NCBI GenBank assembly: GCA_029779995.1 | Contig: JAKOZM010000067.1 | Span: 1 to 16,591, forward strand | Direction of reading: 5' to 3' | DNA from: Actinomycetes bacterium | Lineage (GTDB): Bacteria; Actinomycetota; Actinomycetes; S36-B12; UBA10799 | DNA: 16,591 bases | Shown here: in pieces, positions 2,623 to 16,591 of the stretch | Numbering within the stretch: the first letter of the stretch is position 1 | Layout: each line of letters begins with the position of its first letter | Program-made: the position numbers and the translations under genes | Notes under the pieces: generated by a model | What the model saw: only the letters and a program-made list of their open reading frames with translations | Databases searched by the model: none | Told to the model about the DNA's origin: nothing

Positions 2623-4401
2623 ATGTTTATTCACGTAATTAGCCGTCCCCTGTCCACCGTTTCCCACGTTCCAGGCAGTGGTGTCACAACCGTTGCCGAC
2701 CATCTCCGCCGCGCTGGTGCCGACGTCGTTGAAGACATCGGGATCGCCCTCTCGGACATCAGCCGTGCCGCCCGCGAACTCAGCGAGGAACTGATCCAGC
2801 GCTGGGAGGCGTCGCCTCCCGAGGTCGTGCACACCATCGGTGTCGTGGCCACCATGGCCGCTGTCGCCGCTCGTCCGGAAGGCACTCGGATCGTGGCGAC
2901 CTTCGATGAGCGACCCGCCGCGGCCGAGTTGGAGAAGTCCCTGGCGCGAGAGGTCGATGCCGTGGTGCCCCTGTCCACTGCCGAAATGGCGGACTGGCGT
3001 AATGCCGGGGCCAGAACGTTCAACGTCGGCGCCATGATGCTGGCCAGCCCCGCCGTCACCGAAAGTACCGCGGATGCCCGTGGCCACGTGGTCTGCTTGT
3101 CCACTGGTCGTGCTCTGGAAGACGTGGTCGAGTCGATGACCTTGTGGGGTCCCACGCGGCTCGTGCTGATGGGTCGCCTGGACGCTTCTTCTCGGGCGCG
3201 AGTCCAGCAGTTGGCTGTCAAACTCGGTGTGTCCGATCGCATCGACTACCAGCCAGGCTTGCGTGGTGAACGGCGTAGCCGAGTCTGGGCCGAGGCGGCG
3301 CTGCTGATCGGTGGCGCCGATGGTGCCCGCCATGGTGGGCATGTCCTGGAGGCCGCCGCTCATGGTGTACCTGCGGTCGCCCTGGCGCAAGAAGCCCATC
3401 TCGACCACATCGTTGAAGGCGCCTCCGGTGTCCTCGTCGATCCGCGAGAAGGTCCCCGCGGGCTGGGACGTGGCGTGGCCACTGTGTTGCGCGATCCCCT
3501 GCGGTGCCGCGGCATGGGCTCTGCCACGTTGGTACGGGCAGAGAGCCTGCACGACCAAGCGAGTTTCGGTGAGCGGCTGCTGGAGATCTATCGCCAGGTG
3601 TGCGGCATCCTGCCGGCATCGACGAAGCCAGCCCCGGCGCCGTTGACCCCAGAGGCCACCAAGCTGGCTCTGAACTACATGCCGCTGGCTCGCCAACTGG
3701 CCCATCGCTACTCCGGCCGCGGCCAGCGTCTGGAGGATCTCGTGCAGGTCGCATCGCTGGGACTGGTCCGGGCGGCCTCGCGGTTCAACCCCGACTACGG
3801 GACCGAGTTCCACTCGTTCGCGGTACCCACGATCCTTGGGGAACTGCGCCGCCACTTCCGCGATCACGCATGGGCAGCGCGCGTCCCGCGCAGCCTGCAG
3901 GAGGTGACGCTGAAGGTTCAGCGCGCCTCCGACGAATTGCGAGCCAGCAAGGGCGAGGAGGTCACCCCCGCTGAGGTCGCGGCCCATCTCGGTCTGCTCG
4001 AGGAAGAGGTGCGGCAGGCGATGCAGGCCCGCGGTGAGGCGATGAGTTCGAAGTCGCTGGACCACCCCATGGGTGAGAACGGTGACGAGTCGTACGGAGA
4101 TCTGGTCGGCGAACTCGACCCCGACCTGGAGTACGTCGAGCTGCGGGAATCCGTGCGGGAAGCCATGATGGCGCTACCCGAACGCGAGCGGGAGATCCTG
4201 CTGATGCGGTTCTACGGTGAGCACACGCAGTCGGAGATCGCTGAGCAGCTGGGCCTGTCGCAGGTCCACGTCTCACGGCTGATCACACGAACGCTGGCCG
4301 CCCTGCGCGACCACGTGACCAACGATGTGCCGCTTCCCCGCTCCTGGGCTGCTGAGGAAGTCATCGGGCAGCCTGTCGCGGCCGGTCGTCGCGCGGCCTG
4401 A
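2623..4401 (+). CDS. Fusion of a degenerate GT4-type glycosyltransferase and a SigB/SigF-type sigma factor
   Basis: A 592-residue protein. Residues 1-325 have a GT-B glycosyltransferase layout that can be laid along the GT4 at 7084-8316. The matches are IHVISRPLSTV with GSGVTTVADHLRRAGADVV at the start, PEVVHTIG at 66-73, VDAVVPLSTAEM at 111-122, LGVSDRIDYQPG at 201-212, HVLEAAAHGVPAVAL at 240-254 and GASGVLVDP at 266-274. The donor-site R-x4-K is absent (LSTGRALEDV), and the first Glu of E-x7-E is missing, so catalysis is doubtful. A Pro/Ala-rich linker spans about 330-342. Residues 345-565 are a complete sigma-70 group 3 factor: region 2 (EDLVQVASLGLVRAASRFNP, then GTEFHSFAVPTILGELRRHF), region 3 (423-490) and region 4 with a helix-turn-helix (TQSEIAEQLGLSQVHVSRLI, 535-554). 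The ATG at 2623 has GAGG four bases upstream and starts exactly at the glycosyltransferase fold. A terminator hairpin follows. No anti-sigma gene is adjacent. Confidence 0.9.
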   Translation: MFIHVISRPLSTVSHVPGSGVTTVADHLRRAGADVVEDIGIALSDISRAARELSEELIQRWEASPPEVVHTIGVVATMAAVAARPEGTRIVATFDERPAAAELEKSLAREVDAVVPLSTAEMADWRNAGARTFNVGAMMLASPAVTESTADARGHVVCLSTGRALEDVVESMTLWGPTRLVLMGRLDASSRARVQQLAVKLGVSDRIDYQPGLRGERRSRVWAEAALLIGGADGARHGGHVLEAAAHGVPAVALAQEAHLDHIVEGASGVLVDPREGPRGLGRGVATVLRDPLRCRGMGSATLVRAESLHDQASFGERLLEIYRQVCGILPASTKPAPAPLTPEATKLALNYMPLARQLAHRYSGRGQRLEDLVQVASLGLVRAASRFNPDYGTEFHSFAVPTILGELRRHFRDHAWAARVPRSLQEVTLKVQRASDELRASKGEEVTPAEVAAHLGLLEEEVRQAMQARGEAMSSKSLDHPMGENGDESYGDLVGELDPDLEYVELRESVREAMMALPEREREILLMRFYGEHTQSEIAEQLGLSQVHVSRLITRTLAALRDHVTNDVPLPRSWAAEEVIGQPVAAGRRAA

Positions 4402-4604: not shown

Positions 4605-5144
4605 ATGCGCCCCATTTCCGCGGTCCTGTTCGACCGCGATCACACACTGACGGTGGACGATCCGCCGTACAACGGTGATCCGGAACTGGTGCGCCCGTAT
4701 CCAGGTGCGAGGGAGGCGGTGGCCCGCGTCAAGGCAGCAGGACTGCCTGTGGGGGTCGTGACAAACCAGGCGGGGATCGGGCTGGGAAGGCTCACCGTCG
4801 ACCAGGTCGAGGCTGTCAACGCCAGGGTCGACGCCCTCTTGGGCCCGTTCGACACCTGGCAGTACTGCCCGCACGCCCCCGTGGATGAGTGCAGCTGCCG
4901 AAAGCCCGCACCGGGCCTGGTCCTGCGCGCTGCCGATGCGCTTGGGGTGCCTGTCCCGGAGGTCGTGGTCATTGGCGACACCGTCATGGATGTGGGCGCT
5001 GCCGACGCTGCCGGAGCCATCGGGATCTTTGTTGTGACCGACCGCACCCTCGACTCCGACCTGCGGCGCTGCCCATTGGTGGCGCAGAACATCGGGGAAG
5101 CGGTGAGCTGGGTGCTCGCGCAACGCCAAGGGGACGCCGCATGA
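4605..5144 (+). CDS. gmhB: D-glycero-beta-D-manno-heptose 1,7-bisphosphate 7-phosphatase (GmhB-like)
   Basis: A 179-residue HAD-family IIIA phosphatase that removes the 7-phosphate of heptose 1,7-bisphosphate in the cytosol. The nucleophile motif is FDRDHTLT (D10, D12), motif II is VTNQAGIGLG (T53-Q55), the zinc loop is C88-P-H90...C96-S-C98 followed by RKP (K100), and the last motif is IGDTVMDVGAA (D125, D129). All catalytic and zinc-binding positions of GmhB are present, though His replaces the Gly usually found after the second Asp. The frame is open to an ATG at 4530, but the added 25 residues match nothing in the family, and the fold begins directly at the ATG at 4605. It is the first gene of the operon and overlaps the next by ATGA. 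A histidinol-phosphate phosphatase role is a less likely alternative. Confidence 0.9.
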   Translation: MRPISAVLFDRDHTLTVDDPPYNGDPELVRPYPGAREAVARVKAAGLPVGVVTNQAGIGLGRLTVDQVEAVNARVDALLGPFDTWQYCPHAPVDECSCRKPAPGLVLRAADALGVPVPEVVVIGDTVMDVGAADAAGAIGIFVVTDRTLDSDLRRCPLVAQNIGEAVSWVLAQRQGDAA

Positions 5145-6130
5145 GACCCCGGGTGCTGGTCGCTCGCCTCGACAGTGCCGGGGATGTACTGCTCGCCGGA
5201 CCGGCGATCCGGGCCGTGGCTCGACAGGCCGATGTCACGCTGCTCTGCTCTTCGGTCGGTCTGCCCGCTGCCCGCCTGCTGCCCGATACCCGCACTATGA
5301 TCTTCGACGCCCCGTGGGTGCACGGCAACCCACCACCGGTGCGCGCTCGGGAGTTGGCGCGGCTCGTTTGGCGGCTACGCGGCTTCGATGAAGCCATCAT
5401 CCTGACCTCTTCCTTTCAGTCGTCGCTGCCCATGGCCCTGCTCCTGCGCTTGGCCGGCATACGACCCATTACCGCGATCAGCGACGACTATCCCGGCAGT
5501 CTCATCGACAACCGGGTGCGTCCGGATTACGACCTGCACGAAGTCCAGCGCAGTCTCGCCGTCACCGGGGCGGCGGGCTACCCGGGAAGCGACGACCTGC
5601 GGCTGATCGACGAGCTCGCGGCCTACCCGGTCCCCAGCGAACCCTACGTCGTCGTCCACCCGGGTGCCGAGGCCGAAAGCCGGGCCATCGACCCGCGCAT
5701 CGCCGCCGAAGCGGTCACCGAACTCAGCGCTGCCGGTTACCAGGTATTGGTCACCGGCAGCCTCAGCGAGAAGCGCTTGACCGCGCGGGTCGCCGGCCCG
5801 GCCGGCATCGACCTCGGCGGTCGCACCACCTTCGGACAGCTGGCTTTCGTGCTGCGGGGTGCGCAGGCCGCGATCGTTGGCAACACCGGCCCCGCGCATC
5901 TCGCGGCCAGCGTAGGCACCCCAGTGGTGAGTCTGTTCACACCTGTGGTCCCCGCCCACAAGTGGCAGCCCTACGGCGTCGCGACGACGGTGCTCGGCGA
6001 CCAACGGGCCGCCTGCGCCGACACCCGAGCCCGGGAGTGTCCGATTCCCGGGCACCCGTGCATGGCCGGTGTCCGCGGCAGCGACATCGCGGCTGCCGTC
6101 GCCGGGCTCGCAGTGGGAATGCCCGCATGA
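5141..6130 (+). CDS. Glycosyltransferase family 9 (heptosyltransferase-like) 1
   Basis: A 329-residue GT-B protein of the ADP-heptose:LPS heptosyltransferase family. The N-terminal loop LDSAGDVLLAGPAIRAV (10-26) carries the Asp (D15) aligned with the catalytic Asp of WaaC/WaaF. VVVHPGAEAES lies at 170-180 and the signature VGNTGPAHLAASVGTPVVSL at 246-265. A C-terminal cysteine group (C292, C300, C307 in REC-PIPGHPC) is typical of many GT9 proteins. The Arg/Lys-Trp-Pro that usually follows HPGA is missing here (RAIDP), so donor contacts may differ. The start ATG overlaps the gmhB stop as ATGA. Acting on ADP-heptose is inferred from the operon; the acceptor is unknown. Confidence 0.88.
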   Translation: MRPRVLVARLDSAGDVLLAGPAIRAVARQADVTLLCSSVGLPAARLLPDTRTMIFDAPWVHGNPPPVRARELARLVWRLRGFDEAIILTSSFQSSLPMALLLRLAGIRPITAISDDYPGSLIDNRVRPDYDLHEVQRSLAVTGAAGYPGSDDLRLIDELAAYPVPSEPYVVVHPGAEAESRAIDPRIAAEAVTELSAAGYQVLVTGSLSEKRLTARVAGPAGIDLGGRTTFGQLAFVLRGAQAAIVGNTGPAHLAASVGTPVVSLFTPVVPAHKWQPYGVATTVLGDQRAACADTRARECPIPGHPCMAGVRGSDIAAAVAGLAVGMPA

Positions 6131-7083
6131 AGGTACTGATGTGGCACGTGCACGGCAGCTGGGCGACGGCGTTCGTCAACGGACTGCACGACGTGGTCGT
6201 GCCGGTGACGCCCGACCGGGGCCCGGACGGCCGAGGCCTTCCCGCCACCTACTCCTGGCCGGACACTGCGCGAGAACTGGCACCGGAGCTGCTGCGCGAC
6301 CAGGACTTCGACGTGGTCATTCTGCAGCGGCCCGCTGAATTGGATCTCGTCGAACAGTGGCTGGGGCGGCGGCCCGGCATTGACCTGCCCGCGGTGTACG
6401 TCGAACACAACACGCCCCGGGAGAGCCCAACGGGCAGTCAACACCCACTGGGTGGACAGTCACGCATCCCTATCGTTCATGTGACGCACTTCAACGCTGT
6501 GATGTGGGCCAACGGCCGGGCCCCTGCGCACGTGGTGGAGCACGGTATTCCCGATCCGGGCTACCGCTACACCGGCATGCTGCCGCGGGTCGGCTACGTC
6601 GTGAATGAGCCCGTTCGCCGCGGGCGAGTGACCGGCAGCGATCTGGTTGGGCACATCGCTCGGATCGCGCCGGTCGATGCGTTCGGCATGGACACGGCGC
6701 CGCTGACGACCGGCGCCCACCGGCACGAGGTCATCGGCCATGGCGATATCGCCCACGATGCGATGCACACCATGCTCGCGGACCGCCGGGTCTATGCCCA
6801 CCTGTGTCGCTGGACCAGCCTGGGCCTGTCGCTACTCGAGGCCATGTTCCTGGGCATGCCCGTGGTCGCCTTGTCGGTGACGGAGGCCCCAGAGGCCCTG
6901 AACGGGAGCGCCGCCGTGGTCAGCAACGACCTGCTGCGCCTTCAGGAGCACGTCCGTGACGTCATCCACGACCCTGAGCTAGCAGCCGACCTCGGCCGCC
7001 GCAACAGGGCCCATGTCGAAACTCGCTACTCACTACAGCGATTCCACGCGGATTGGGATCGCCTACTCAAGGAGGTCCTCTAA
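6127..7083 (+). CDS. Divergent GT4-like glycosyltransferase
   Basis: A 318-residue protein starting MKVLMWHVHGSWATAFVNGL. It has the layout of a GT-B enzyme, shortened in the N-domain. FDVVILQRPAEL (61-72) and AVYVEHNTPRE (89-99) fit the first Rossmann half. VYAHLCRWTSLGLSLLEAMF (222-241), then LGMPVVAL and EAPEAL, fit the donor-binding half of group 1 glycosyltransferases. The first Glu of E-x7-E is replaced by Thr/Ser and only E238 is kept. The R-x4-K motif is not apparent. It may be an unusual active enzyme or a partner subunit of the intact GT4 that follows. It overlaps the previous gene by ATGA and abuts the next with no gap. Confidence 0.75.
   Translation: MKVLMWHVHGSWATAFVNGLHDVVVPVTPDRGPDGRGLPATYSWPDTARELAPELLRDQDFDVVILQRPAELDLVEQWLGRRPGIDLPAVYVEHNTPRESPTGSQHPLGGQSRIPIVHVTHFNAVMWANGRAPAHVVEHGIPDPGYRYTGMLPRVGYVVNEPVRRGRVTGSDLVGHIARIAPVDAFGMDTAPLTTGAHRHEVIGHGDIAHDAMHTMLADRRVYAHLCRWTSLGLSLLEAMFLGMPVVALSVTEAPEALNGSAAVVSNDLLRLQEHVRDVIHDPELAADLGRRNRAHVETRYSLQRFHADWDRLLKEVL
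7069..7075 (+). promoter_or_regulatory. Strong ribosome binding site of the GT4 gene
   Basis: AAGGAGG ends eight bases before the ATG at 7084 and lies inside the last codons of the preceding gene. It is the strongest Shine-Dalgarno sequence in the operon, at the one internal junction where genes abut without overlap. This suggests the GT4 is translated independently rather than by re-initiation. Confidence 0.75.
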
Positions 7084-8316
7084 ATGAAGATCGCAATGGT
7101 TTCTGAACACGCCAGTCCCCTCGCCGTCCTCGGCGGAGTTGATGCCGGGGGGCAGAACGTTCACGTCGACGCGCTGGCTCGCGGTTTGGCGGCCCGCGGT
7201 CATGAGGTCGTGGTCTACACCCGGCGGGACAACCCCGACCTGGCGCAGCGGGTGGAGATTGTGCCCGGAATGGCGGTGCACCACATCGATGCCGGACCTG
7301 CCGAGCCCGTCCCGAAGGATGAGTTCGGCCCGTTCCTGGCCCGCTTCGCCCAGGAGCTCACGAAGCAGTGGGAGATCGATCGCCCGGACGTGATCCACGC
7401 TCACTTCTGGATGAGCGGTGTGATCAGCCTCGAAGGCGCCGAACTGCTGGACATCCCCACCGCGATGACCTACCACGCCCTCGGAGTGGTCAAGAAGCGT
7501 CATCAGGCCGAGGCCGACACCAGCCCGGACACCCGGATCCCGGCCGAACGTCAACTGCTGACCCGGATGTCCCGGATTATCGCAACGTGCACGGATGAGG
7601 TACGGGAACTCGTTGAGATGGGCGGCGACGAGAAGCGGATGGACATCGTTCCGTGCGGGGTGGACTCGACGGCGTTCTGCCCGGCCGAGGTCGGCGAGAG
7701 CGATGTGGTGGCCACCGAGCGGCAAGAGCGGCACAGGATCCTTTCGTTGAGCCGACTGGTGCCCCGCAAGGGTGTCGGTGAGGTGATCGAGATGCTCGCG
7801 TACCTCGATGATGTCGAGCTGACCGTGGCTGGCGGACCGGAGCCGCAGGCTCTGGACAGCGATGCCGAAGTTGCCCGGCTGCGGCGTCTCGCGGATGAGC
7901 ACGGGGTGGCCGACCGGGTGACCTTCGTTGGTGCCGTTGGCCGCGACCGGATCCCGCAGTTGTTGGCCGAGATGGATCTGGCCGTCGTGCTGCCATGGTA
8001 CGAACCCTTCGGCATTGTGCCGTTGGAGATCATGTCGTGTGGCAAACCCCTGGTCGGGTCGGCCGTTGGTGGCCTGCTGGACACCGTGAGCGACGGTGAG
8101 ACCGGACTGTTGGTCCCCCCGCGCAATCCGAGGCGGGCGGCAACGGCCGTACGCACCCTGCTCGACGACGCGGCTCTGCGCCGTTCCATGGGTAAGGCGG
8201 CCCGGCGAAAGATCGAGGAGCAGTACGACTGGCGTCGCGTCTGTGAAGCCACCGAGGCGGTCTACCGCGACATGCTCACCTCCCACTCCACGGTGGCCGT
8301 GCGGACCTCGGCCTGA
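7084..8316 (+). CDS. Group 1 (GT4) glycosyltransferase, MshA/sucrose-synthase-like
   Basis: A 410-residue retaining glycosyltransferase with all usual parts. The N-terminus reads MVSEHASPLAVLGGVDAGGQ, with the glycine loop and the VHVDALARGLAARGHEVVVYTRR run of the MshA/sucrose-phosphate-synthase group. PDVIHAHFWMSG lies at 101-112 and ATCTDEVREL at 167-176. The donor site is SLSRLVPRKG (R224, K229), and E-x7-E is EPFGIVPLE (E307, E315), followed by GGLLDTV and GETGLLVPP. The donor is a nucleotide sugar; which one cannot be read from the sequence. The N-terminal half of the sigma fusion (2623-4401) resembles this protein along its whole length, so the two are probably related by duplication. 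The stop overlaps the next start as TGATG. Confidence 0.9.
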   Translation: MKIAMVSEHASPLAVLGGVDAGGQNVHVDALARGLAARGHEVVVYTRRDNPDLAQRVEIVPGMAVHHIDAGPAEPVPKDEFGPFLARFAQELTKQWEIDRPDVIHAHFWMSGVISLEGAELLDIPTAMTYHALGVVKKRHQAEADTSPDTRIPAERQLLTRMSRIIATCTDEVRELVEMGGDEKRMDIVPCGVDSTAFCPAEVGESDVVATERQERHRILSLSRLVPRKGVGEVIEMLAYLDDVELTVAGGPEPQALDSDAEVARLRRLADEHGVADRVTFVGAVGRDRIPQLLAEMDLAVVLPWYEPFGIVPLEIMSCGKPLVGSAVGGLLDTVSDGETGLLVPPRNPRRAATAVRTLLDDAALRRSMGKAARRKIEEQYDWRRVCEATEAVYRDMLTSHSTVAVRTSA

Positions 8317-8945
8317 TGGGACCGCGCACCACGATCCCGGATCTGCCGGAGGTCGTTCTGGACACCGCCGACCCGTTGGTGATTGAACACCGCCGGGCCA
8401 CGGTCGCTGCCTTGAATGCCGCCAGCGGGGCCCTGGAACGGTGCGCGCAATGGGGTCGGCGGTTGGCGCAGATCCTGCCCGCTGGCGGGCGCCTGTTGGT
8501 GTGTGGCAATGGTGGCAGTGCGGCAGAGGCCCAGCACCTGACGGCAGAGATCGTGGGTCGGTTCCAGGAGGACCGGCCAGCGTACTCGGCCATCTCGCTA
8601 CACGCTGAAACGTCGTCCCTGACCGCAATCGTCAACGACTATGGCGCCACCGAGATGTTCGCTCGGCAGGTGGCCGCGCACGGTCGGGCCGGCGACGTCC
8701 TGCTGATGCTGACCACCAGCGGGCGCAGCCCCAACCTGCTGGTGGCCGCGGAACGTGCCGCTGGCCTGGGGATGTCGACCTGGGCTTTGACCGGCCCCGC
8801 ACCCAACGCGCTCAGTGGCTTGGCACAGGAGACGGCATCCATCCCAGGCCGTACGGTCAGCGCCATCCAGGAAGTGCATCTCGTGGCCGCGCATGTGCTG
8901 TGTGCGGCCTTCGACGCAGCCCTGCCTGTGGGGAGAGCCGGATGA
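8316..8945 (+). CDS. gmhA: Sedoheptulose 7-phosphate isomerase (GmhA-like)
   Basis: A 209-residue SIS-domain protein. GmhA converts sedoheptulose 7-phosphate to D-glycero-D-manno-heptose 7-phosphate, the first step of the heptose pathway. Seen here: LVCGNGGSAAEAQHLTAEIV (61-80), GRFQEDRPAYSAISL, TSSLTAIVNDYG (99-110), TTSGRSPN (133-140), and VSAIQEVHLVAAH (181-193). The zinc ligands known from E. coli GmhA (His, Glu, Gln, His) line up with H74, E78, Q185 and H193, so the active site is complete. It overlaps the next gene by ATGA. The similar DiaA lacks the metal set, so GmhA is clearly the better call. Confidence 0.92.
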   Translation: MGPRTTIPDLPEVVLDTADPLVIEHRRATVAALNAASGALERCAQWGRRLAQILPAGGRLLVCGNGGSAAEAQHLTAEIVGRFQEDRPAYSAISLHAETSSLTAIVNDYGATEMFARQVAAHGRAGDVLLMLTTSGRSPNLLVAAERAAGLGMSTWALTGPAPNALSGLAQETASIPGRTVSAIQEVHLVAAHVLCAAFDAALPVGRAG

Positions 8946-10321
8946 GCCTGCACGAGGCCGACGGGCCCCCGTTGGTGGTGGTCGGTGATTCCCTGCTGGA
9001 CATCGACCTGCTGGGCACGGCAACTCGGCTGTGTCCCGACGAACCCGTCCCGGTGATCGAGGACATCACGGAGGTGACACGGCCGGGCGGGGCTGGGCTG
9101 GCTGCCCTTCTGTGTGCACGACTGCGGCCCACCGTCCTTGTCACGGCCCTCGGTGGCGACGAGGCCGGAGAGCGCCTGCGGGAGATGCTCGCCGAGCACG
9201 TGACGCTGGTGGATGTCGGGGCCTCCCACACAGTGGTGAAGACGCGTGTCCGAGTAGGGGATCGGACCGTGGCTCGGTTGGACCGGGTCCATGAAGGTTT
9301 CGCTGCGCCAGAGGCTGTGGACCCGGAACTCTTCGGCTACGCCGCCGCGGTGCTCGTGAGCGACTACGGACTTGGGGTGACCGCTCGTGAGGATATCCGA
9401 GCTCTACTCGCAGGAGCAGCGCCCACGGTATGGGATCCGCATCCGCGCGGGTCCATGCCCGTCGCCGGCGTCACCACGGTCACGCCCAACCTGGCGGAGG
9501 CGGCGCATTTCGCTGGGCGTGGTGACGTGCTGGATCAAGCTCGCACGCTGCTGCAGAAGTGGGACCCGCAGTCGGTCACCATCACGCGAGGAGCCGACGG
9601 CGCCGTGCTGGCCACCAGGCACGGCACGCCGTTGATCGTGCCTGCCCCCGTCGTGGCACCTACCGACACCTGTGGTGCCGGCGATGCCTTCGCCGCCGCC
9701 CTGGTCAACGCGCTGGCCGACGATCTGGGACTGACCGACGCGGCCCAGCAGGCTGTGGTCAGTGCTGCGGCGTACCTGAGCAACGGCGGGGTCGGTGCTC
9801 TGCAGGTCGATGCGAGCCCGGCGGACCGGGCAGACCCCGATCCCAGCGACCTGGTGGCGACCGTGCGAGCCCGAGGCGGCCGCGTTGTCATGGCCGGTGG
9901 CTGCTTCGACCTCCTGCACGCCGGCCATGTCGCGTACCTCGAGGCAGCTCGCGCTCTCGGTGATTGCCTGGTGGTCGCGGTGAACAGCGACGACAGTGTG
10001 CGAACTCTCAAGGGAAGCGGTCGACCCGTGGTCGGCCAGGAGGACCGGGCGCGCGTGCTGCGCGCGTTGGAGTGTGTGGACGCTGTCATCGTCTTCGATG
10101 AACAGACCCCTGCAGCCCTGCTGGACCGCCTGCGCCCCGACATTTTCGCCAAGGGCGGCGACTACCACGCCACCCAAGTCCCCGAGACCGACGTGGTGCG
10201 CGCCTATGGCGGCGAGGTTGTGGTTCTGCCAACCCTGGCGGGGCGCAGCAGCACGCGTCTGGTCCACGCCGCCCGCGCGGCGCATCATGAGGAGGAACAA
10301 TGCAGGACTCAGCCAGCTTAG
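8942..10321 (+). CDS. hldE: Bifunctional heptose 7-phosphate kinase / heptose 1-phosphate nucleotidyltransferase (HldE-like) 1
   Basis: A 459-residue two-domain protein. Residues 10-290 form a PfkB/ribokinase domain: VVVGDSLLDIDLLG (12-25), RPGGAG (47-52), and APTDTCGAGDAFAAAL with catalytic D248. Residues 313-445 form a cytidylyltransferase-type nucleotidyltransferase: GGCFDLLHAGHVAYL with HAGH at 326-329, AVNSDDSVRTLKGSGRPV, then RPDIFAKGGDYH with KGGDY at 404-408, and LAGRSSTRL. HldE phosphorylates heptose 7-phosphate at C1 and, after GmhB, transfers AMP to give ADP-heptose. The kinase substrate loop differs from classic HldE (GGAGLAA instead of GGAANVA), while the transferase half is canonical. 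The start overlaps gmhA by ATGA, and the end overlaps the SDR gene by 22 bases. Confidence 0.9.
   Translation: MSLHEADGPPLVVVGDSLLDIDLLGTATRLCPDEPVPVIEDITEVTRPGGAGLAALLCARLRPTVLVTALGGDEAGERLREMLAEHVTLVDVGASHTVVKTRVRVGDRTVARLDRVHEGFAAPEAVDPELFGYAAAVLVSDYGLGVTAREDIRALLAGAAPTVWDPHPRGSMPVAGVTTVTPNLAEAAHFAGRGDVLDQARTLLQKWDPQSVTITRGADGAVLATRHGTPLIVPAPVVAPTDTCGAGDAFAAALVNALADDLGLTDAAQQAVVSAAAYLSNGGVGALQVDASPADRADPDPSDLVATVRARGGRVVMAGGCFDLLHAGHVAYLEAARALGDCLVVAVNSDDSVRTLKGSGRPVVGQEDRARVLRALECVDAVIVFDEQTPAALLDRLRPDIFAKGGDYHATQVPETDVVRAYGGEVVVLPTLAGRSSTRLVHAARAAHHEEEQCRTQPA
10290..10296 (+). promoter_or_regulatory. Ribosome binding site of the SDR gene inside hldE 1
   Basis: AGGAGGA lies three bases before the ATG at 10300, within the last codons of hldE-like 1. 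It decides the SDR start and explains the 22-base overlap of the two genes. Confidence 0.7.
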
Positions 10322-10989
10322 GACGGGTTCTGGTCACTGGCGGCGCATCCGGTTTGGGAGCGGCTGTCGTCGAGGCGATCGCCCGGGCTGGCGGGCAGCC
10401 GATCATCATGGACCTCAACGAGGGCACCGGTGAGCATCCGTCCTACTGCGTGGACCTGGCTGACACGGCTGCGACCGAGGCCATGGTCGGCTACATCGCC
10501 GAGTCCGGTCTGGACGCCGTGGTGACCTGTGCCGCTGTCGACTCCTGTGGACCCCTGGAGGCGGTGAAGTCCGATGACTGGGAGCGCGTCATTCAGGTCA
10601 ATTTGATGGGTACCGCTGCGGTCATCCGCGCCGCCATGCCCGTGCTGATGGCCGGTCAGGGACGCGTCGTGACGGTCGCCTCAACGCTGGGTCGCCGGGC
10701 GCTGCCCGACGCGACGGCCTATTGCGCCTCGAAGTTCGGCGTGGTGGGGCTGAGCCGCGCACTGAACGCCGAGTTGGGTGCCAGGCTGCCCGTCACCTGT
10801 GTGCTGCCTGGAGGGATGCGCACGGCGTTCTTCGACGGCCGTCCCGCCAAGTACAGGCCAGCAGACGACGCCCCGCTGATGGATCCGGCCGACGTCGCCG
10901 ACATCATCGTCAACGTCCTGCGGGCGCGCCGCACCGCCATGGTGCCCGAGATCATGGTCACGCCGGGCGGCGAGACCTCATGGCCCTAG
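10300..10989 (+). CDS. Classical short-chain dehydrogenase/reductase (SDR)
   Basis: A 229-residue NAD(P)-dependent oxidoreductase with a Rossmann fold. The cofactor loop is TGGASGLG (13-20), D52 lies in VDLAD, the catalytic set is N101 (VNLMG), S128 (VASTLG), Y141 and K145 (YCASK), and the loop after strand 6 is LPGGMRT. The usual NNAG motif reads TCAAV. It is of classical, not extended, SDR length and pattern, so it is not the HldD epimerase, which is about 310 residues with an extended-SDR fold. Its place between the two hldE-like genes suggests oxidation, reduction or epimerisation of a heptose intermediate, or supply of an acceptor. That is inference. It overlaps the next gene by ten bases. 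Confidence 0.88.
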   Translation: MQDSASLGRVLVTGGASGLGAAVVEAIARAGGQPIIMDLNEGTGEHPSYCVDLADTAATEAMVGYIAESGLDAVVTCAAVDSCGPLEAVKSDDWERVIQVNLMGTAAVIRAAMPVLMAGQGRVVTVASTLGRRALPDATAYCASKFGVVGLSRALNAELGARLPVTCVLPGGMRTAFFDGRPAKYRPADDAPLMDPADVADIIVNVLRARRTAMVPEIMVTPGGETSWP

Positions 10990-11876
10990 AACTGCTCGCC
11001 CTGCGGGCAGCCGGAGTGGGTGACCTGCTGACGGCCGTTCCGGCGCTGCGGGCCGTTGCCGGACTGGGCCCGGACGGTGTCACGCTGGCCGCTCCGCGGT
11101 GGCTGCATCCGCTGGCCCCGCTGCTGCCGGGCGTCAGTGACGTCGTCGATGTGCAGGGCCTGGATCCGCAGACGGACCTCTCGGGCAAGGTGGTCTTCAA
11201 CCTGCACGGCCGCGGCCCGCAAAGCCACCGGGCCCTGCTGGAGAAGGGGCCGCGCGATCTCGTGGCCTTCCGGTGCCCGGGAGTGTGGGAGTTCGGGCCG
11301 CAGTGGTTCACCCATGATGTGGAGGAACCTGAGCGCCAGCGTTTCGCCCGGCTCCTGGAATGGGTCGGCGTCTCCTGCGATCCCGACGACGTCGGCATCA
11401 AACGTCCCGCCAATCCACCGGCGGTGGGGCAGGCGGTGGTCCTGCACGTGGGGGGTACCGATGCCCACCGTCGTTGGCCGGCGGAATCGTTCGCGGCACT
11501 GGCCCGGCTGCTTGGAAGCGACAACCTGGTCATCACCGGCGGGCCCGGAGATCTGGTCACTGCGAACCGCACGGCGAAGTTGGCCGGACTGGACGCCGCG
11601 CAGGTCCTGGCAGGCCGGTTGACCCTGGACGATTTCGCGGCGGTGATCGCCAACGCCCGGCTGGTCGTGTCCGGTGACACCGGCGGAGCGCACCTCGCTC
11701 ACGCCTTCGGCACGCCCTCTGTCGTGGTATTCGGGCCGTCGTCGCCGGGCCAGTGGGGCCCACCGCCCGGGATCCCGAGCCACGTTCTGCGGGCGGGCGG
11801 TCCGGCACCGGTCGCCAGCGATGTTCCCGTCGACGAGGTGTATGCGGCCGTTCTGTGGCAATTGGAGCAGGCATGA
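10980..11876 (+). CDS. Glycosyltransferase family 9 (heptosyltransferase-like) 2
   Basis: A 298-residue, compact GT9 protein starting MALELLALRAAGVGDLLTAV, where GVGDLL carries the Asp (D15) aligned with the catalytic residue of heptosyltransferases. VVFNLHGRGPQSHRAL lies at 71-86, LHVGGTDAHRRWPAESFAAL (155-174) provides the typical basic-Trp-Pro donor contact, ITGGPGD lies at 185-191, and the signature is SGDTGGAHLAHAFGTPSVVV (231-250) followed by FGPSSPGQWGPP. The C-terminal cysteine cluster seen in the other two GT9 proteins is missing, and the protein is about 30-65 residues shorter. It resembles the short actinobacterial GT9 group. The ATG at 10980 was chosen because the fold begins there; it overlaps the SDR gene by ten bases and the next gene by ATGA. 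Confidence 0.88.
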   Translation: MALELLALRAAGVGDLLTAVPALRAVAGLGPDGVTLAAPRWLHPLAPLLPGVSDVVDVQGLDPQTDLSGKVVFNLHGRGPQSHRALLEKGPRDLVAFRCPGVWEFGPQWFTHDVEEPERQRFARLLEWVGVSCDPDDVGIKRPANPPAVGQAVVLHVGGTDAHRRWPAESFAALARLLGSDNLVITGGPGDLVTANRTAKLAGLDAAQVLAGRLTLDDFAAVIANARLVVSGDTGGAHLAHAFGTPSVVVFGPSSPGQWGPPPGIPSHVLRAGGPAPVASDVPVDEVYAAVLWQLEQA

Positions 11877-13336
11877 CCTTGCGACCTTCCTTGAACCGCA
11901 CCGTTGACCAGTTTGCCTGGGGAAGGGTGCTGGTCGTCGGTGACGTCCTGGTGGACGAGTGGTTGTCGGGCTCGTGCGGCAAAGTGGCTCGGGAAGCGCC
12001 GGTGCCGACCATTGACGTCCGCGACCGCGATCTGGTCCCCGGCGGAGCGGGCAACACCGCTGTCAACGTGGCAGCGCTCGGTGGCAGGGTCAGGCTGTTG
12101 ACCGCGCTCGGCGACGACCCGGAAGGCGACGCCGTCGCCACCCAGCTTCAGCGGCGTGGTGTCGAGGTGTGCGCGATCAGGATCGGTCAGCGCCGGACCA
12201 TGGCCAAACGACGGATCACGGTCGGCCGGCAGGTGGTGGCCCGCTTCGATGAGGGTGATAACGAACCCGTCAGTGCCTCGGTGGATGCCGACCTTGCCGA
12301 ACGGCTGGGTGCCCTGGCCGCCGAAGCCGACGTGGTGGTGCTCGCTGACTACGGTCTGGGCACCTGCGCCGGCCCGGCGATGCGCGAGGCGCTGACCGCG
12401 GTGTCTCATGCCCGCACGGTTGTGATCGACGCCCACGATGTGCGCGCCTGGGCGCAGATCCACCCAGAGGTAGTGACTCCCAACTGGGCCGAGGTTGCCG
12501 AAATGCTCTCGGCCTCCACGCAGATGACGGGTCCCGTGCGCCTGCATCGCCTGCGCATGGACGGCCATCGCCTGCTGGAGGCAACGGGTGCGGCGGCCGT
12601 CGTGGCCACCCTGGACGGGGACGGGGCCGCGGTCGTCACCGCCGATGCCGTGACTCACCTGCCCACGCGTCGGATCGACGACCCACACAGCACTGGGGCC
12701 GGTGACACTCTCACCGCAGCCATCGCCTTGAGCCTGGCTGTCGGGGCCCCACTGGCGGCGGCCGTGGAGATTGCCGTGGCGGCAGCCACCGTCGTTGTAC
12801 AGCGACCCGGCACCGCGACCTGCTCGGTGCAGGATCTGGTGGTCGGACCGAATAGTCCGCTACTGACCGCGGAACACCTGGTCGACATCTGCCGGGAGCA
12901 CCGGGTGGCGGGTCGCCGGATCGCGTTCACGAATGGCTGCTTCGACGTGCTGCATGCGGGCCACGTCGCCTTTCTGGCGGCTGCTGCCTCTGAGGCGGAC
13001 GTGCTCGTGGTGGCGTTGAACAGCGACGCGGGAGTGCGTGCCATCAAGGGACCTGGGCGGCCAGTCAACCGGGTGGCTGACCGGGCCGCGGTTCTGGCCG
13101 CGATGGACAGGATCGACCATCTGGCGAGTTTCGACGGGAACGCGCCGACGGCCTTGATCGAGGCGATCCGCCCGGACGTCTACATCAAAGGGGCCGACCA
13201 CGACGTCGTGGCACTGCCCGAGGCCCGGGCCACCGAGCGACTCGGCGGACGAGTGGTGACCGTGCCACTGTTGCCCGACCGGTCTACGACGGGTGTGATC
13301 GAAGCATGCGCTCTGGCCCAACGCTCGTCGGCGTGA
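11873..13336 (+). CDS. hldE: Bifunctional heptose kinase / nucleotidyltransferase (HldE-like) 2
   Basis: A 487-residue second HldE-type fusion. The kinase half (18-325) is closer to classic HldE than the first copy: VLVVGDVLVDEWLSG, EAPVPTIDV, PGGAGNTAVNVAALGG (57-72), VVLADYGLG, VVTPNWAEV, and DDPHSTGAGDTLTAAIAL with catalytic D278. The nucleotidyltransferase half (348-480) has FTNGCFDVLHAGHVAFL with HAGH at 361-364, LNSDAGVRAIKGPGRPV and LLPDRSTTGVI. However, the normally conserved KGGDY is KGADH at 439-443. That change touches the nucleotide or sugar pocket, so specificity or activity may differ. About 60 residues (206-265) between the kinase motifs include MTGPVRLHRLRMDGHRLLEA, which is typical of the family. 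It overlaps its neighbours by four bases at the 5' end and four or 31 at the 3' end. Confidence 0.9.
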   Translation: MTLRPSLNRTVDQFAWGRVLVVGDVLVDEWLSGSCGKVAREAPVPTIDVRDRDLVPGGAGNTAVNVAALGGRVRLLTALGDDPEGDAVATQLQRRGVEVCAIRIGQRRTMAKRRITVGRQVVARFDEGDNEPVSASVDADLAERLGALAAEADVVVLADYGLGTCAGPAMREALTAVSHARTVVIDAHDVRAWAQIHPEVVTPNWAEVAEMLSASTQMTGPVRLHRLRMDGHRLLEATGAAAVVATLDGDGAAVVTADAVTHLPTRRIDDPHSTGAGDTLTAAIALSLAVGAPLAAAVEIAVAAATVVVQRPGTATCSVQDLVVGPNSPLLTAEHLVDICREHRVAGRRIAFTNGCFDVLHAGHVAFLAAAASEADVLVVALNSDAGVRAIKGPGRPVNRVADRAAVLAAMDRIDHLASFDGNAPTALIEAIRPDVYIKGADHDVVALPEARATERLGGRVVTVPLLPDRSTTGVIEACALAQRSSA

Positions 13337-14427
13337 GTCCGCCCCCGGCGCTGGCCGAGGTGGCGTCCATCGCGGTGCTGCGGGCCAATGCGATGGGCGA
13401 CTACCTGGTCTGTGAGCCGGCATTGGCCGCCATCCGCGTCGCCGCTCCACAAGCCCGGATCACTCTGCTGGGCGGAAGCTTCGCTGCATCCGCACTGCCC
13501 CATCGGCCCGGGCCAGTGGATGAGGTGGTCCTGGTTCCTTATCTCGATGGGCTGCGGCAGCCCCCGTCAGGGACCGGTGTGGACGACGTGGAGGTGGCCC
13601 ATTTCTACGACCAGATGCGGACCCGGCGATTCGATCTGGCGCTGCAGTTGCACGGCGGGGGGCGCAACAGCAACCCGGTCGTCCTCGCCCTCGGCGCGGC
13701 GTACACGGCTGGCTTGCGAGCCTTCGACGCCCCCGCCCTGGACCGCAGCGTGGACTACCAGTTCTGGCAGCACGAGGTGTTCCGCTACCTGGAGGTGGCC
13801 GCGGCCATCGGAGCGCCCCCGGTGCGGGTGCAGCCGCACTTCGAGGTCCTCCCTGAGGATCTGCAGGTCAGCTTCGCATGTGTGCCAAAGCAGCAAAGGC
13901 CACTGGTCGTGGTCCATCCGGGCGCGACCGACCCACGCCGGCGCTGGCCAGCGTCGCACTTCGCGCAGGTCGCTGATGCGCTGACGGACCGAGGCGCCCT
14001 GGTGTGCGTGATCGGCAACGAGGAGGAGGTGCACCCCGTCGCTGACAGGGCCAGAGATGTCCGGGTCCTGACGGACACGAGCTTCGCGCAACTGGTCGGT
14101 CTGCTGGCCCGAGCCACCCTGCTGGTGGGCAATGACAGCGGGCCCCGACACCTTGCGGAGGCCGTGGGTACGCCGACGGTGTCCGTCTACTGGTGCGGCA
14201 ACATGGTCAACGCGGGGCCAACGGTGCGCCACAACCATCGGGCTCACATCTCTTGGACCACCCACTGTCCGGTATGTGGCATCTCGATGGTCGGCGAGCC
14301 GTTCCCCGCCCGATGCTGCGATACGGTGACGTGTGTATCCGACGTTCCCGTTGCGCACGTCCTCGGGAGCGCACTGGAATTGTTCGAACAAGCACACCAC
14401 CAGCCCAACACGTCGGTTGGAGGCTGA
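13333..14427 (+). CDS. Glycosyltransferase family 9 (heptosyltransferase-like) 3
   Basis: A 364-residue GT9 protein and the last gene of the operon. AVLRANAMGDYLVCEPALAA (14-33) holds the aligned catalytic Asp D23. LALQLHGGGRNSNPVVLAL lies at 102-120, VVVHPGATDPRRRWPASHF (192-210) holds the donor site, and VGNDSGPRHLAEAVGTPTV (265-283) is the family signature. The C-terminus carries C312-x2-C315 and C328, C329, C334, a possible metal site. GTG at 13333 gives a GTGA four-base overlap like its neighbours. An in-frame ATG at 13306 would add nine residues and cannot be excluded. The donor is inferred to be an ADP-heptose; the acceptor is unknown. Confidence 0.88.
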   Translation: MSPPPALAEVASIAVLRANAMGDYLVCEPALAAIRVAAPQARITLLGGSFAASALPHRPGPVDEVVLVPYLDGLRQPPSGTGVDDVEVAHFYDQMRTRRFDLALQLHGGGRNSNPVVLALGAAYTAGLRAFDAPALDRSVDYQFWQHEVFRYLEVAAAIGAPPVRVQPHFEVLPEDLQVSFACVPKQQRPLVVVHPGATDPRRRWPASHFAQVADALTDRGALVCVIGNEEEVHPVADRARDVRVLTDTSFAQLVGLLARATLLVGNDSGPRHLAEAVGTPTVSVYWCGNMVNAGPTVRHNHRAHISWTTHCPVCGISMVGEPFPARCCDTVTCVSDVPVAHVLGSALELFEQAHHQPNTSVGG

Positions 14428-14504: not shown

Positions 14505-15752
14505 ATGGCCCGCTACAGTACCGACTCGGCAGCGGCCGACCAGCCCCTGGCCGAAACCGTGGCTGCCCTGAGCAAAGAGGTCAGGGATCTCCGCGCGTCG
14601 GCGCGCATGCGAGCCGTGATCGAACAGGCCAAAGGGGTGCTGGTCGAACGTCACAGCATCACGCTGGAAGAGGCGTTCGCCCGGCTGCGCACCATGTCTC
14701 AAAAACACAATGTGCGCCTCGTCGAAGTCGCCGCCACCGTCGTCGGGGTTGCCATTCCTGAGGTCGAGGACCCGGTGACCACCTACGCGGACAGTGTGCT
14801 GTCCAAAGAGCTGCCGGCGTCCAAGGCCATCTCCGGCACGTGGCGGGCGCTGCGTGAACAGCCGGAGATCAAGGCGGGTGTGGTCACGGCCATCATGGAC
14901 TCCTTGGCCGGAGCCACCAGTCAGGGCGATGAGGCGGCGCAGTTGCTGCTGGAAGTCCTGGCACAGCATGAGGTCGCCGCTCTGCTGGTGTACCGCTGTG
15001 GCCTGGACGGGTCGTTACGCCTCGTCGGCCAGGTCGGCATCCCCGGCGACCTCGTGTCGTCCTGGCGGCACATCCCACCGAGCACTGATATCCCCTACAC
15101 CCGGTCGGTGATCGAGAACCGCTCATTGTTCTTCGGTAGCCGGGAGGAGCGCATCGCCGAGTTCCCCGCGAGTTCGCGTGCCCGGGGTGGATACGCCGCC
15201 ACCGCCACGGTGCCGGTCGTCGACGAGGGCGAGGTCATCGGCGTTGTGGGGCTCGTGTGGCACGACGAGCAGTCCTTCGACGATGTGCGCCGCAAGAGTG
15301 TGGAGCGCACGGTGCAGCGGATCACGCCCCTGTTGCTGCGCAACGTGGTGTTCGCCGATCCCGAGCTCGACTGGCTCAACACCCTGCTGCGCCTGCACTT
15401 GGATCCCTGGCTGCTCATGGAGGCCGTCGTCAGTGCCGACGGTGTGGTGCGGGACTTTGTCATCCAAGACGTCGCGGTGGCGGCGGGAGTGCCGGCGCAG
15501 GGGTGGATCGGGCATCGGCTGCTGGAGATCTGGCCGTTCCTGGCCGGCGACCCCGTCCTCGGGGCGCTGCTCTCACTGGCCCAGACCGGTGGGTCGTGGA
15601 GTTCCATGACGACCACGGAGTCGGCCGCGCCGTGGGGAGAGCAGGAGACGGAGATCCGGGCAGTGCGGCTGGGTCAGCGGATGGCGGTGGTGTGGCGGTC
15701 CGGCTCCTCGTCCAAGCGGACGAGAAGCACTGTCGCGTTGCCGGAGTTCTGA
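14505..15752 (+). CDS. ANTAR-GAF-PAS-like regulator
   Basis: A 415-residue soluble regulator. Residues 28-82 are an ANTAR domain, which binds RNA and prevents termination: RAVIEQAKGVLVERHSITLE followed by EAFARLRTMSQKHN and LVEVAATVVG. Residues 130-280 fit a GAF domain: LLVYRCGLDGSLRLVGQVG, SWRHIPPSTDIPYTRSVIEN, LFFGSREERIAEFP, ATATVPVVDEGEVIGVVGLV. Residues 285-398 look like a PAS domain similar to those in actinobacterial PP2C regulators. In most ANTAR proteins the RNA-binding part is C-terminal; here it is N-terminal. The gene starts 77 bases after the heptose operon on the same strand and could be co-transcribed. Its 3' end overlaps the convergent phosphatase gene by 79 bases. Confidence 0.85.
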   Translation: MARYSTDSAAADQPLAETVAALSKEVRDLRASARMRAVIEQAKGVLVERHSITLEEAFARLRTMSQKHNVRLVEVAATVVGVAIPEVEDPVTTYADSVLSKELPASKAISGTWRALREQPEIKAGVVTAIMDSLAGATSQGDEAAQLLLEVLAQHEVAALLVYRCGLDGSLRLVGQVGIPGDLVSSWRHIPPSTDIPYTRSVIENRSLFFGSREERIAEFPASSRARGGYAATATVPVVDEGEVIGVVGLVWHDEQSFDDVRRKSVERTVQRITPLLLRNVVFADPELDWLNTLLRLHLDPWLLMEAVVSADGVVRDFVIQDVAVAAGVPAQGWIGHRLLEIWPFLAGDPVLGALLSLAQTGGSWSSMTTTESAAPWGEQETEIRAVRLGQRMAVVWRSGSSSKRTRSTVALPEF

Positions 15753-16591
15753 TCCGGCACCAGCACGGCATCGGTGAGGGCCTTGGCCCAGCCTGGCGTT
15801 TCGCGTTTGCGAAGTGCTGTCGCTGAGGCCCGCAGGGTCGATAGGCCCTCGATCACGTCATTCCCGCCGTCGACGACGCCGTCGGAGTAGAAGACGAGGG
15901 AGTCTGCCGGGGCCAATTGCCGGGTGAGCGGGACGGCCAGTTCGACCTGTTCCAGCACGGTGGCCGGACCCGTGCTCTCCAGCCATTCCGTGGCGCCGTT
16001 CTCGTGGATCAGCAGCGCCGGCGGGTGCCCGCCCCCCGCGAGTTCGAGGCGCCCGCTGTCGGTATCCAGCACCGCGATCATGAGGGACACATCCGGTAGC
16101 TCACCCTGAGCGCCGAGAGTCCGTGCCGTCCGTCCCACGACCTCCTCCAGGCGGATGCCGGCCTCCACGTAGGCCCGAGCGGTCTGCAGCACCTTCGAGG
16201 CGTCGCGCACGGAGAGTACCCCGTCTCCGAGGGCGTCCGCGATCATGATCAGCAGCCGCCCATCGGGCAGCGGAGCCACGTTGACCACGTCCCCACTGGC
16301 GGAGCCGCCGGCGACGGTCGGTGTGCTGTACAGATCGACACTCGCGCCGGGGATCGGTTGCAGATCGGCGAACTCCGGTGCGCCGAGCGCCTTGAGCAGC
16401 TGCTCCTGCTCCCCCTGCCGCACGGCTGCCTCCAGCATCAGGCGACGGTTCAGCTCAGCGTCCTTGACCGCTGTCACGTCGCGCAGACTGACCACGTGAC
16501 TGTCATGGTCGATGGGGGCGCTGGTGTACTCGACCGCGATCTGGGCGTCCACGCCCGTGATGCTCTCCCCTTCGACGAGCGAGGGCGAGGT
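15674..16591 (-). CDS. PAS-PP2C (SpoIIE-type) serine phosphatase, 5' end beyond the window
   Basis: The frame is open to the right edge, so only the last 305 residues are visible. The first 35 or so (ITGVDAQIAVEYTSAPID and following SLRDVTAVKDAELNRR) are the end of a PAS domain, then comes a helical linker. About residues 80-295 form a SpoIIE/RsbU-type PP2C phosphatase: GGSASGDVVNVAPLPDGRLL, IADALGDGVLSV, LPDVSLMIAVLD, LAGGGHPPALLI, LVFYSDGVVDGGND, NATVLLVRLD. Such enzymes dephosphorylate anti-anti-sigma factors in partner-switching systems. Two departures are visible: the usual GGDxYDV reads SGDVVNV, and the late DDAT-type Asp pair reads GNAT. A GTG at 16552 would start mid-domain and is not the true start. 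Confidence 0.87.
   Translation of the reverse strand, partial: TSPSLVEGESITGVDAQIAVEYTSAPIDHDSHVVSLRDVTAVKDAELNRRLMLEAAVRQGEQEQLLKALGAPEFADLQPIPGASVDLYSTPTVAGGSASGDVVNVAPLPDGRLLIMIADALGDGVLSVRDASKVLQTARAYVEAGIRLEEVVGRTARTLGAQGELPDVSLMIAVLDTDSGRLELAGGGHPPALLIHENGATEWLESTGPATVLEQVELAVPLTRQLAPADSLVFYSDGVVDGGNDVIEGLSTLRASATALRKRETPGWAKALTDAVLVPDQNSGNATVLLVRLDEEPDRHTTAIR

What the first reader, a model, noticed from the sequence alone, without database searches (positions are those of the whole stretch)
2623..4401. Glycosyltransferase fused to a SigB/SigF-type sigma factor
One uninterrupted frame encodes a GT-B glycosyltransferase-like half (residues 1-325) and a complete sigma factor with regions 2, 3 and 4 (345-565). 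Sigma factors of this group are normally stand-alone proteins of roughly 250-300 residues controlled by a separate anti-sigma factor. Here a sugar-enzyme fold is built in, and the gene sits directly upstream of a glycan operon. Inference: the protein is a one-component switch in which binding of a sugar nucleotide, glycan intermediate or partner glycosyltransferase controls promoter recognition.
Basis: partly seen in the sequence, partly recalled or inferred. Interest (0 to 1): 0.88.

Follow-up and report, generated by a model that had tools for sequence, protein, structure and literature searches.

The report
Sigma factor fused to dead glycosyltransferase
Some uncultivated actinobacteria carry a gene switch (a sigma factor) permanently joined to what looks like a retired sugar-transferring enzyme that probably controls it, an arrangement that our searches did not find described.

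Summary
The fusion is real. Frame 2623-4401 is open and encodes a GT-B, GT4-type domain (1-330), a short linker and a complete SigB/SigF/SigG-type sigma factor (345-565). It is a recurrent family: 113 full-length members aligned; the fused sigmas sampled form one clade; both halves diverged together. (1) The GT half looks catalytically retired: the first Glu of the GT4 EX7E motif is absent in 113 of 113 proteins and the Arg/Lys donor-phosphate loop is shortened and not conserved, yet the fold is intact and the former pocket conserved (R236 in 109 of 113). (2) The most constant partner is an ANTAR-GAF gene rather than the heptose operon: it is linked or present in 4 of 4 cases examined, in exactly the 2 of 166 genomes of one order that hold the fusion, and on 26 shared contigs by length matching. 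An RsbW-like (anti-sigma-type) gene lies beside 31 of 32 stand-alone SigF genes and beside 0 of 4 fusion genes. Best reading: a pseudo-glycosyltransferase has replaced the anti-sigma factor as an on-board regulator, working with the ANTAR-GAF protein, often on a heptose-glycan cluster. Regulation itself is inferred, not shown.

The parts
2623..4401 (+). SigGT: pseudo-GT4 domain fused to SigB/SigF/SigG-type sigma factor (592 aa)
2623..3612 (+). GT-B (GT4-like) half, residues 1-330
3319..3351 (+). Altered EX7E region, residues 233-243 (DGARHGGHVLE); the canonical first Glu position is A235
   Evidence: HMMER alignment to 6kih; columns over 113 members
3613..3654 (+). Low-confidence linker, residues 331-344; variable length in the family
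   Evidence: pLDDT 55 in block 331-340; 17-59 residues over columns 327-345
3655..4317 (+). Sigma regions 2, 3 and 4, residues 345-565
14505..15752 (+). ANTAR-GAF protein (weak PAS), constant partner gene of SigGT
   Evidence: Pfam ANTAR 61.6 bits, GAF_2 33 bits, PAS_4 22.3 bits (just under its cut-off of 23.1); linkage
15674..16591 (-). SpoIIE-type phosphatase (runs off the window), convergent with the ANTAR-GAF gene
   Evidence: PF07228 83 bits; 40-42% identical genes in the same place in G001 and G002
4605..5144 (+). gmhB-like HAD phosphatase
   Evidence: below the gmhB equivalog cut-offs
5141..6130 (+). GT9 (heptosyltransferase-type)
   Evidence: PF01075
6127..7083 (+). GT4-type glycosyltransferase (its EX7E region also lacks the first Glu by my reading)
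7084..8316 (+). MshA-like GT4 with intact EX7E motif (in-window comparison)
8316..8945 (+). gmhA-like isomerase
8942..10321 (+). hldE-like bifunctional kinase/adenylyltransferase 1
10300..10989 (+). Short-chain dehydrogenase (SDR)
10980..11876 (+). GT9
11873..13336 (+). hldE-like 2
13306..14427 (+). GT9

Best explanation
SigGT is an alternative SigB/SigF/SigG-type sigma factor whose usual partner, an RsbW-like anti-sigma factor encoded next door, has been replaced by an N-terminal GT4-fold domain that has lost its catalytic residues. Shown here: the architecture, its recurrence, one clade of fused sigmas, the loss of GT4 donor-binding residues with the fold kept, the absence of a linked RsbW-like gene, and linkage to an ANTAR-GAF gene and, in three of four loci, to a heptose-glycan cluster. 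Inferred: the pseudo-enzyme's cleft binds a ligand (a glycan intermediate or other metabolite, less likely an ordinary nucleotide sugar) or a partner protein; opening or closing of the GT-B clamp exposes or hides the sigma's polymerase-binding surface; the ANTAR-GAF protein acts in the same circuit; the heptose-glycan cluster is in the regulon.
For: Fusion recurs with both halves. Fused sigmas form one clade apart from stand-alone SigF: support 99/100 with 34 fused and 3 stand-alone rows (its bootstrap had not fully settled), 98/100 with 24 fused and 17 stand-alone rows. Each of the three relative genomes also has a SigF without a GT half. Distances of the two halves correlate: Mantel r 0.755 over 113 rows, at most 0.124 in 500 permutations. 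E at the EX7E first position 0 of 113; E243 in 101, R236 in 109, H237 in 98 of 113. In the shortened donor-phosphate loop (158-170) Lys in 5 and Arg in 31 of 113. RsbW-like gene in 31 of 32 stand-alone loci (all but L058) and 0 of 4 SigGT loci. ANTAR-GAF protein in 3 of 3 relative genomes, in exactly the 2 of 166 genomes of the order of G001 that hold SigGT, and 26 distinct contig lengths shared with SigGT (offset control mean 0.17, maximum 2).
Against: No experiment; domain packing is unresolved (pTM 0.60). Catalysis is not strictly excluded: column 233, two before the canonical Glu, is D or E in 86 of 113, E243 is mostly kept, and a neighbouring GT4 gene (6127-7083) also lacks the first Glu. 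Anti-sigma control in trans remains possible: the three genomes hold 9, 14 and 12 PF13581 matches, a lower bound, since the RsbW-like frames beside SigF score under that family's cut-off (15.6-23.9 against 27.4); for the same reason calling them anti-sigma factors rests on position and weak similarity. G001 and G002 are close relatives, so their shared ANTAR-GAF gene counts roughly as one event. No SigF-type promoter was found in front of SigGT or gmhB.
Confidence: 0.55

Rival explanations
1. The GT half is a docking or scaffold domain with no ligand control: it tethers the sigma factor to glycan-synthesis enzymes or to the ANTAR-GAF protein, so that holoenzyme formation depends on partner availability.
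For: Catalytic motifs lost while the fold is kept; a constant genetic partner exists; control by partner proteins is proposed for extension-bearing ECF42 sigmas (PMC8999054, passages).
Against: The former donor pocket is strongly conserved (R236, H237, G238, E243), more as expected of a ligand site than of a bare scaffold.
Confidence: 0.2
2. SigGT is still governed by a conventional partner-switching circuit in trans: an RsbW-like kinase encoded elsewhere holds it, and the SpoIIE-type phosphatase beside the ANTAR-GAF gene takes part in releasing it; the GT half is an accessory.
For: SpoIIE-type phosphatase at the far end of the cluster in the window, G001 and G002; PF13581 proteins elsewhere in all three genomes.
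Against: No RsbW-like gene beside SigGT in 4 of 4 loci against 31 of 32 for stand-alone SigF; 19 sigma columns carry different residues, each at 85% or more, in 113 fused and 32 stand-alone proteins (a 20th listed column is a gap from trimming); no relative of the phosphatase in L003.
Confidence: 0.15
3. The GT half is an active glycosyltransferase with a rearranged active site, so the protein is a bifunctional enzyme and sigma factor.
Against: First Glu absent in 113 of 113; donor-phosphate Arg/Lys loop shortened and not conserved.
Confidence: 0.1

Closest known systems
Stand-alone actinobacterial SigF/SigB-type sigma factors (TIGR02980) with a neighbouring RsbW-like gene
   Same: Sigma regions 2-4; about 46-52% identity over the sigma half in the matches listed
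   Different: 0 of 32 stand-alone loci hold a GT half and 31 of 32 hold an RsbW-like gene; SigGT has a GT-B domain in front and no linked RsbW-like gene
[quoted passage not shown] PMC8999054, passages read; OrbS on-board iron sensor, PMC9023288, abstract and outline read)
   Same: A fused extension takes over the role of the missing anti-sigma factor
   Different: ECF sigmas have sigma2-sigma4 only (recalled; also in the listed abstract of PMC7730460), with mostly C-terminal extensions in the passages seen; SigGT is a SigB/F/G-type sigma with region 3 and a 330-residue N-terminal pseudo-enzyme. In the passages seen, the review mentions glycosyltransferases only as neighbours of ECF248
GT4 retaining glycosyltransferases (sucrose-phosphate synthase 6kih, MshA 3c4q, BshA 3mbo)
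   Different: First Glu of EX7E and Arg/Lys loop lost; fused to a sigma factor
GmaR of Listeria (PMC3150276, passages read)
   Same: A glycosyltransferase domain in one protein with a transcription-control function
   Different: GmaR is described as a working glycosyltransferase whose separate C-terminal part binds the repressor MogR; it is not a sigma factor
RmdB with WhiG of Streptomyces (PMC13232838, abstract and outline read)
   Same: An enzyme steers a sigma factor
   Different: Separate proteins; a phosphodiesterase that binds WhiG and keeps its anti-sigma factor off

Membership tests
SigB/SigF/SigG sigma factor (TIGR02980) | Score above the curated cut-off | tested here: met
   Window 240.7 bits against 234.35; the three relatives score 232.1-234, just under it
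SigB/SigF/SigG sigma factor (TIGR02980) | Sigma regions 2, 3 and 4 present | tested here: met
   PF04542, PF04539, PF04545 above cut-offs; regions 2 and 3 in 78 of 78 members, region 4 in 77 of 78
SigB/SigF/SigG sigma factor (TIGR02980) | Linked RsbW-like gene (usual context, not part of the family definition) | tested here: not met
   0 of 4 SigGT loci against 31 of 32 stand-alone loci
GT4 glycosyltransferase | GT-B fold | tested here: met
GT4 glycosyltransferase | EX7E motif (recalled as the GT4 donor-binding motif) | tested here: not met
   First Glu 0 of 113; second Glu 101 of 113
GT4 glycosyltransferase | Arg/Lys donor-phosphate loop (recalled GR..K pattern) | tested here: not met
   Loop shorter than in 6kih; Lys in 5 and Arg in 31 of 113 within 158-170
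GT4 glycosyltransferase | Sugar transfer activity | not testable with these tools
   Needs protein and assay
ECF sigma with regulatory extension | Sigma2-sigma4 only, no region 3 (recalled) | tested here: not met
   Region 3 present
ECF sigma with regulatory extension | Fused domain controls sigma activity | not testable with these tools
   Needs transcription assays
ANTAR antitermination system | ANTAR domain protein | tested here: met
   PF03861 61.6 bits in the window, 65.4 in L003
ANTAR antitermination system | Dual stem-loop target RNA with A1/G4 hexaloops (PMC8164766, passages) | tested here: inconclusive
   A simple scan (stems of 4 or more pairs) found a pair in 1 of 9 regions before SigGT, gmhB, ANTAR or hldE genes of the window and L001-L003; it lies in L001 inside the csbD-like frame. 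No Rfam match at gathering threshold in the window, L001, L002 or L003

The most novel reading that the evidence does not exclude
A new class of self-regulated sigma factor in which a retired GT-B glycosyltransferase serves as on-board anti-sigma and metabolite sensor, paired with an ANTAR-GAF (probably RNA-binding) protein, so that one small module could control both transcription initiation and elongation of a surface-glycan cluster.
Probability: 0.3. Interest if true: 0.9.

Novelty: new variant of a known kind. Interest (0 to 1): 0.75.

Why it matters
Sigma factors carrying their own regulator are known to me mainly among small ECF sigmas. This would extend the principle to the SigB/SigF/SigG group, with a whole two-domain pseudo-enzyme as the regulator, and would show how an anti-sigma partnership can be replaced. 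The ANTAR-GAF partner gives a directly testable two-gene module, and the linked cluster suggests what it controls in actinobacteria with heptose-type glycan genes.

Tried and rejected
Frameshift or sequencing artefact: rejected; the fusion recurs down to 35% identity in the GT half (P0088).

Sigma part made alone from an internal start: in-frame GTG 3598, TTG 3643 and ATG 3679 exist, none with a convincing ribosome-binding site by eye. No start position near the junction is shared by all four loci, though the window's TTG 3643 has an ATG at the matching place in L003. Not excluded without proteomics.

SigF-type promoter (GTT N13-18 GGGTA, recalled consensus): three matches, window 1659 (+), window 3844 (-) and L001 7360 (-), none in front of SigGT or gmhB; loci L001-L003 and L023-L025 were scanned with the window. 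A GGGTAA without that -35 part lies in the window's leader, about base 2450, and is not seen in the L001 or L002 leaders.

ANTAR target hairpins: a pair in 1 of 9 regions. Rfam: nothing.

A first regular expression for RsbW-like ATPases found nothing even beside stand-alone SigF; the pattern was bad and was replaced by tblastn with five RsbW-like queries read from those loci. Five of the 32 stand-alone loci are thus matched by their own query, and 29 of the 32 are among the best matches of a 296-genome sample, so many are near relatives. All five queries have PF13581 as best Pfam match, all below its cut-off.

Rarity: the genome scan used one pattern (184 stretches, 3 relatives), which only 81 of the 113 aligned members contain. 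Even samples of 393 and 396 genomes added no new fusion; the first also gave three GT4-like frames at E about 1e-31. Only the best few candidates per genome were scored in the larger searches.

Literature: searches listed no paper that I could recognise as being on a sigma factor fused to a glycosyltransferase; only openly licensed PMC papers are held. Apart from the five papers named, only listings were seen.

The fold of the sigma part was not assessed with VIA-align: the rows shown cover residues 1-331 only.

Full report

A family. A search with the GT half found 90 proteins, 86 of which carry sigma domains; one with the sigma half found 254 at E <= 1e-20, 120 of them listed. I aligned the 113 proteins of at least 560 residues, window included, leaving out P0002 (99% identical over the GT half) and P0091. 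Mean pairwise identity is 46% in the GT half and 67% in the sigma half, and the two sets of distances correlate (Mantel r 0.755; 500 permutations at most 0.124). Fused sigmas group together with support 99/100 (34 fused, 3 stand-alone, 3 WhiG-like rows, bootstrap not fully settled) and 98/100 (24 fused, 17 stand-alone, 2 WhiG-like). In the second tree the long-branched L058 sits next to them and the program warns that the join may be false, so the nearest stand-alone relative is unsure. Relatives with names are MAGs of Candidatus Nanopelagicales (L001, L002, P0078, P0083), an unplaced Actinomycetes MAG (L003), and one labelled Limnocylindrales (P0054).

A retired enzyme. The HMMER alignment of the family profile to 6kih places A235 where that enzyme has the first Glu of EX7E and E243 at the second, and shows a five-residue gap where the donor-phosphate loop is. 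Over 113 rows, position 235 is A 55, S 53, C 2, V 2, R 1; 243 is E in 101; 236 is R 109, Q 4; 237 is H in 98. Within 158-170, Lys occurs in 5 and Arg in 31 of 113. For comparison, the neighbouring GT4 gene at 7084-8316 reads EPFGIVPLE there and SRLVPRKG in its loop. Against this reading: column 233 is D or E in 86 of 113, so a shifted acidic residue could still touch a ligand, and the other neighbouring GT4 gene (6127-7083) also lacks the first Glu. The pocket is conserved though changed, which speaks for a ligand or partner site rather than decay.

No linked anti-sigma gene. All three relative genomes also hold a SigF-type gene over the family cut-off, and none of 32 stand-alone loci shows a GT half by tblastn at 1e-3 while L001-L003 do. 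Reading upstream of eight stand-alone genes showed a short RsbW-like frame in most; tblastn with five of these finds one in 31 of 32 stand-alone loci (not L058) and in none of the 4 SigGT loci, although the latter are longer (L002 and L003 end 1.1 and 1.4 kb upstream of the gene). These frames have PF13581 as best Pfam match but under its cut-off, so 'anti-sigma' rests on position and weak similarity.

A constant partner. The ANTAR-GAF gene of the window (14505-15752) has a best match in G001, G002 and G003 at 59, 60 and 49% identity (G002 has weaker matches too). In G003 it overlaps the end of SigGT by 4 bases if its TTG at 3199 is the start. In the order of G001, the genomes with SigGT (2 of 166) and those with the ANTAR-GAF protein at E <= 1e-60 (2 of 166) are the same two, close relatives of each other. 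Of 129 SigGT-type proteins have a longest contig of 5 kb or more; 26 distinct lengths among these recur among the 120 listed ANTAR-GAF homologues, while shifting by 1-60 bases either way gives 0.17 on average and 2 at most. The shortest shared contig is 5,621 bases. This infers shared contigs from length; the contigs were not read.

The cluster. G001 shows three contigs: upstream gene, SigGT, csbD-like, gmhB, GT9, GT4; then GT4, gmhA, hldE, SDR, GT9, hldE; then GT9, ANTAR-GAF, SpoIIE-type phosphatase. G002 shows two: upstream gene, SigGT, csbD-like (by eye), gmhB, GT9, GT4, GT4, gmhA, hldE (cut); then hldE (cut), GT9, ANTAR-GAF, phosphatase; SDR and the middle GT9 were not seen. This fits the window's order, but the joins between contigs are not proven, and the csbD-like gene is not in the window's 203-base gap. 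In L003 the ANTAR-GAF gene follows SigGT directly and no relative of the window's heptose genes is on that 9.8-kb contig; G003 has a gmhA-like gene elsewhere at 45% identity. gmhA-like genes occur in 5 of 166 genomes of the order, 3 of them without SigGT. So the heptose cluster is a frequent but not a necessary companion.

How it probably works. ECF sigmas with regulatory extensions show that a fused domain can take the place of an anti-sigma factor (PMC8999054, passages; OrbS, PMC9023288, abstract and outline). I infer that the GT-B clamp does this here, answering a ligand in the altered cleft or a partner, and that the ANTAR-GAF protein belongs to the same circuit. ANTAR proteins act on dual hairpin RNAs (PMC8164766, passages); a simple scan found none before SigGT. 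Proteins with enzyme domains that steer transcription have precedents in GmaR (PMC3150276, passages) and RmdB (PMC13232838, abstract and outline).

Verdict. A genuine sigma architecture that the listed paper searches did not turn up, with good comparative evidence for an on-board pseudo-enzyme and a two-gene module, and no direct evidence yet for switching or a ligand.

Noticed in passing
   Followed up: partly
L001:11939-12112 and the matching gap in L002: CsbD-like small protein gene between SigGT and gmhB (PF05532 57.8 bits in L001; L002 by eye); csbD is recalled as a SigB-controlled stress gene in Bacillus.
   Followed up: partly
window:1691-2221: Gene upstream of SigGT, 54% and 50% identical in L001 and L002, with weak Rho_N and hemerythrin similarity below cut-offs; L003 has a clear hemerythrin gene convergent with its ANTAR-GAF gene.
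   Followed up: partly
window:2423-2622 and the same place in L001-L003: Partly conserved leader before SigGT: GCGTCCA...GTGGCGC in the window, L001 and L002, seen by eye and not lined up by MAFFT; CAGCAGGC-CGCG near the start in L001-L003, weaker in the window. Function unknown.
   Followed up: partly
   Followed up: no
window:8942-10321 and 11873-13336: Two hldE-like genes in one cluster; the first scores higher for the adenylyltransferase part, the second for the kinase part.
   Followed up: no
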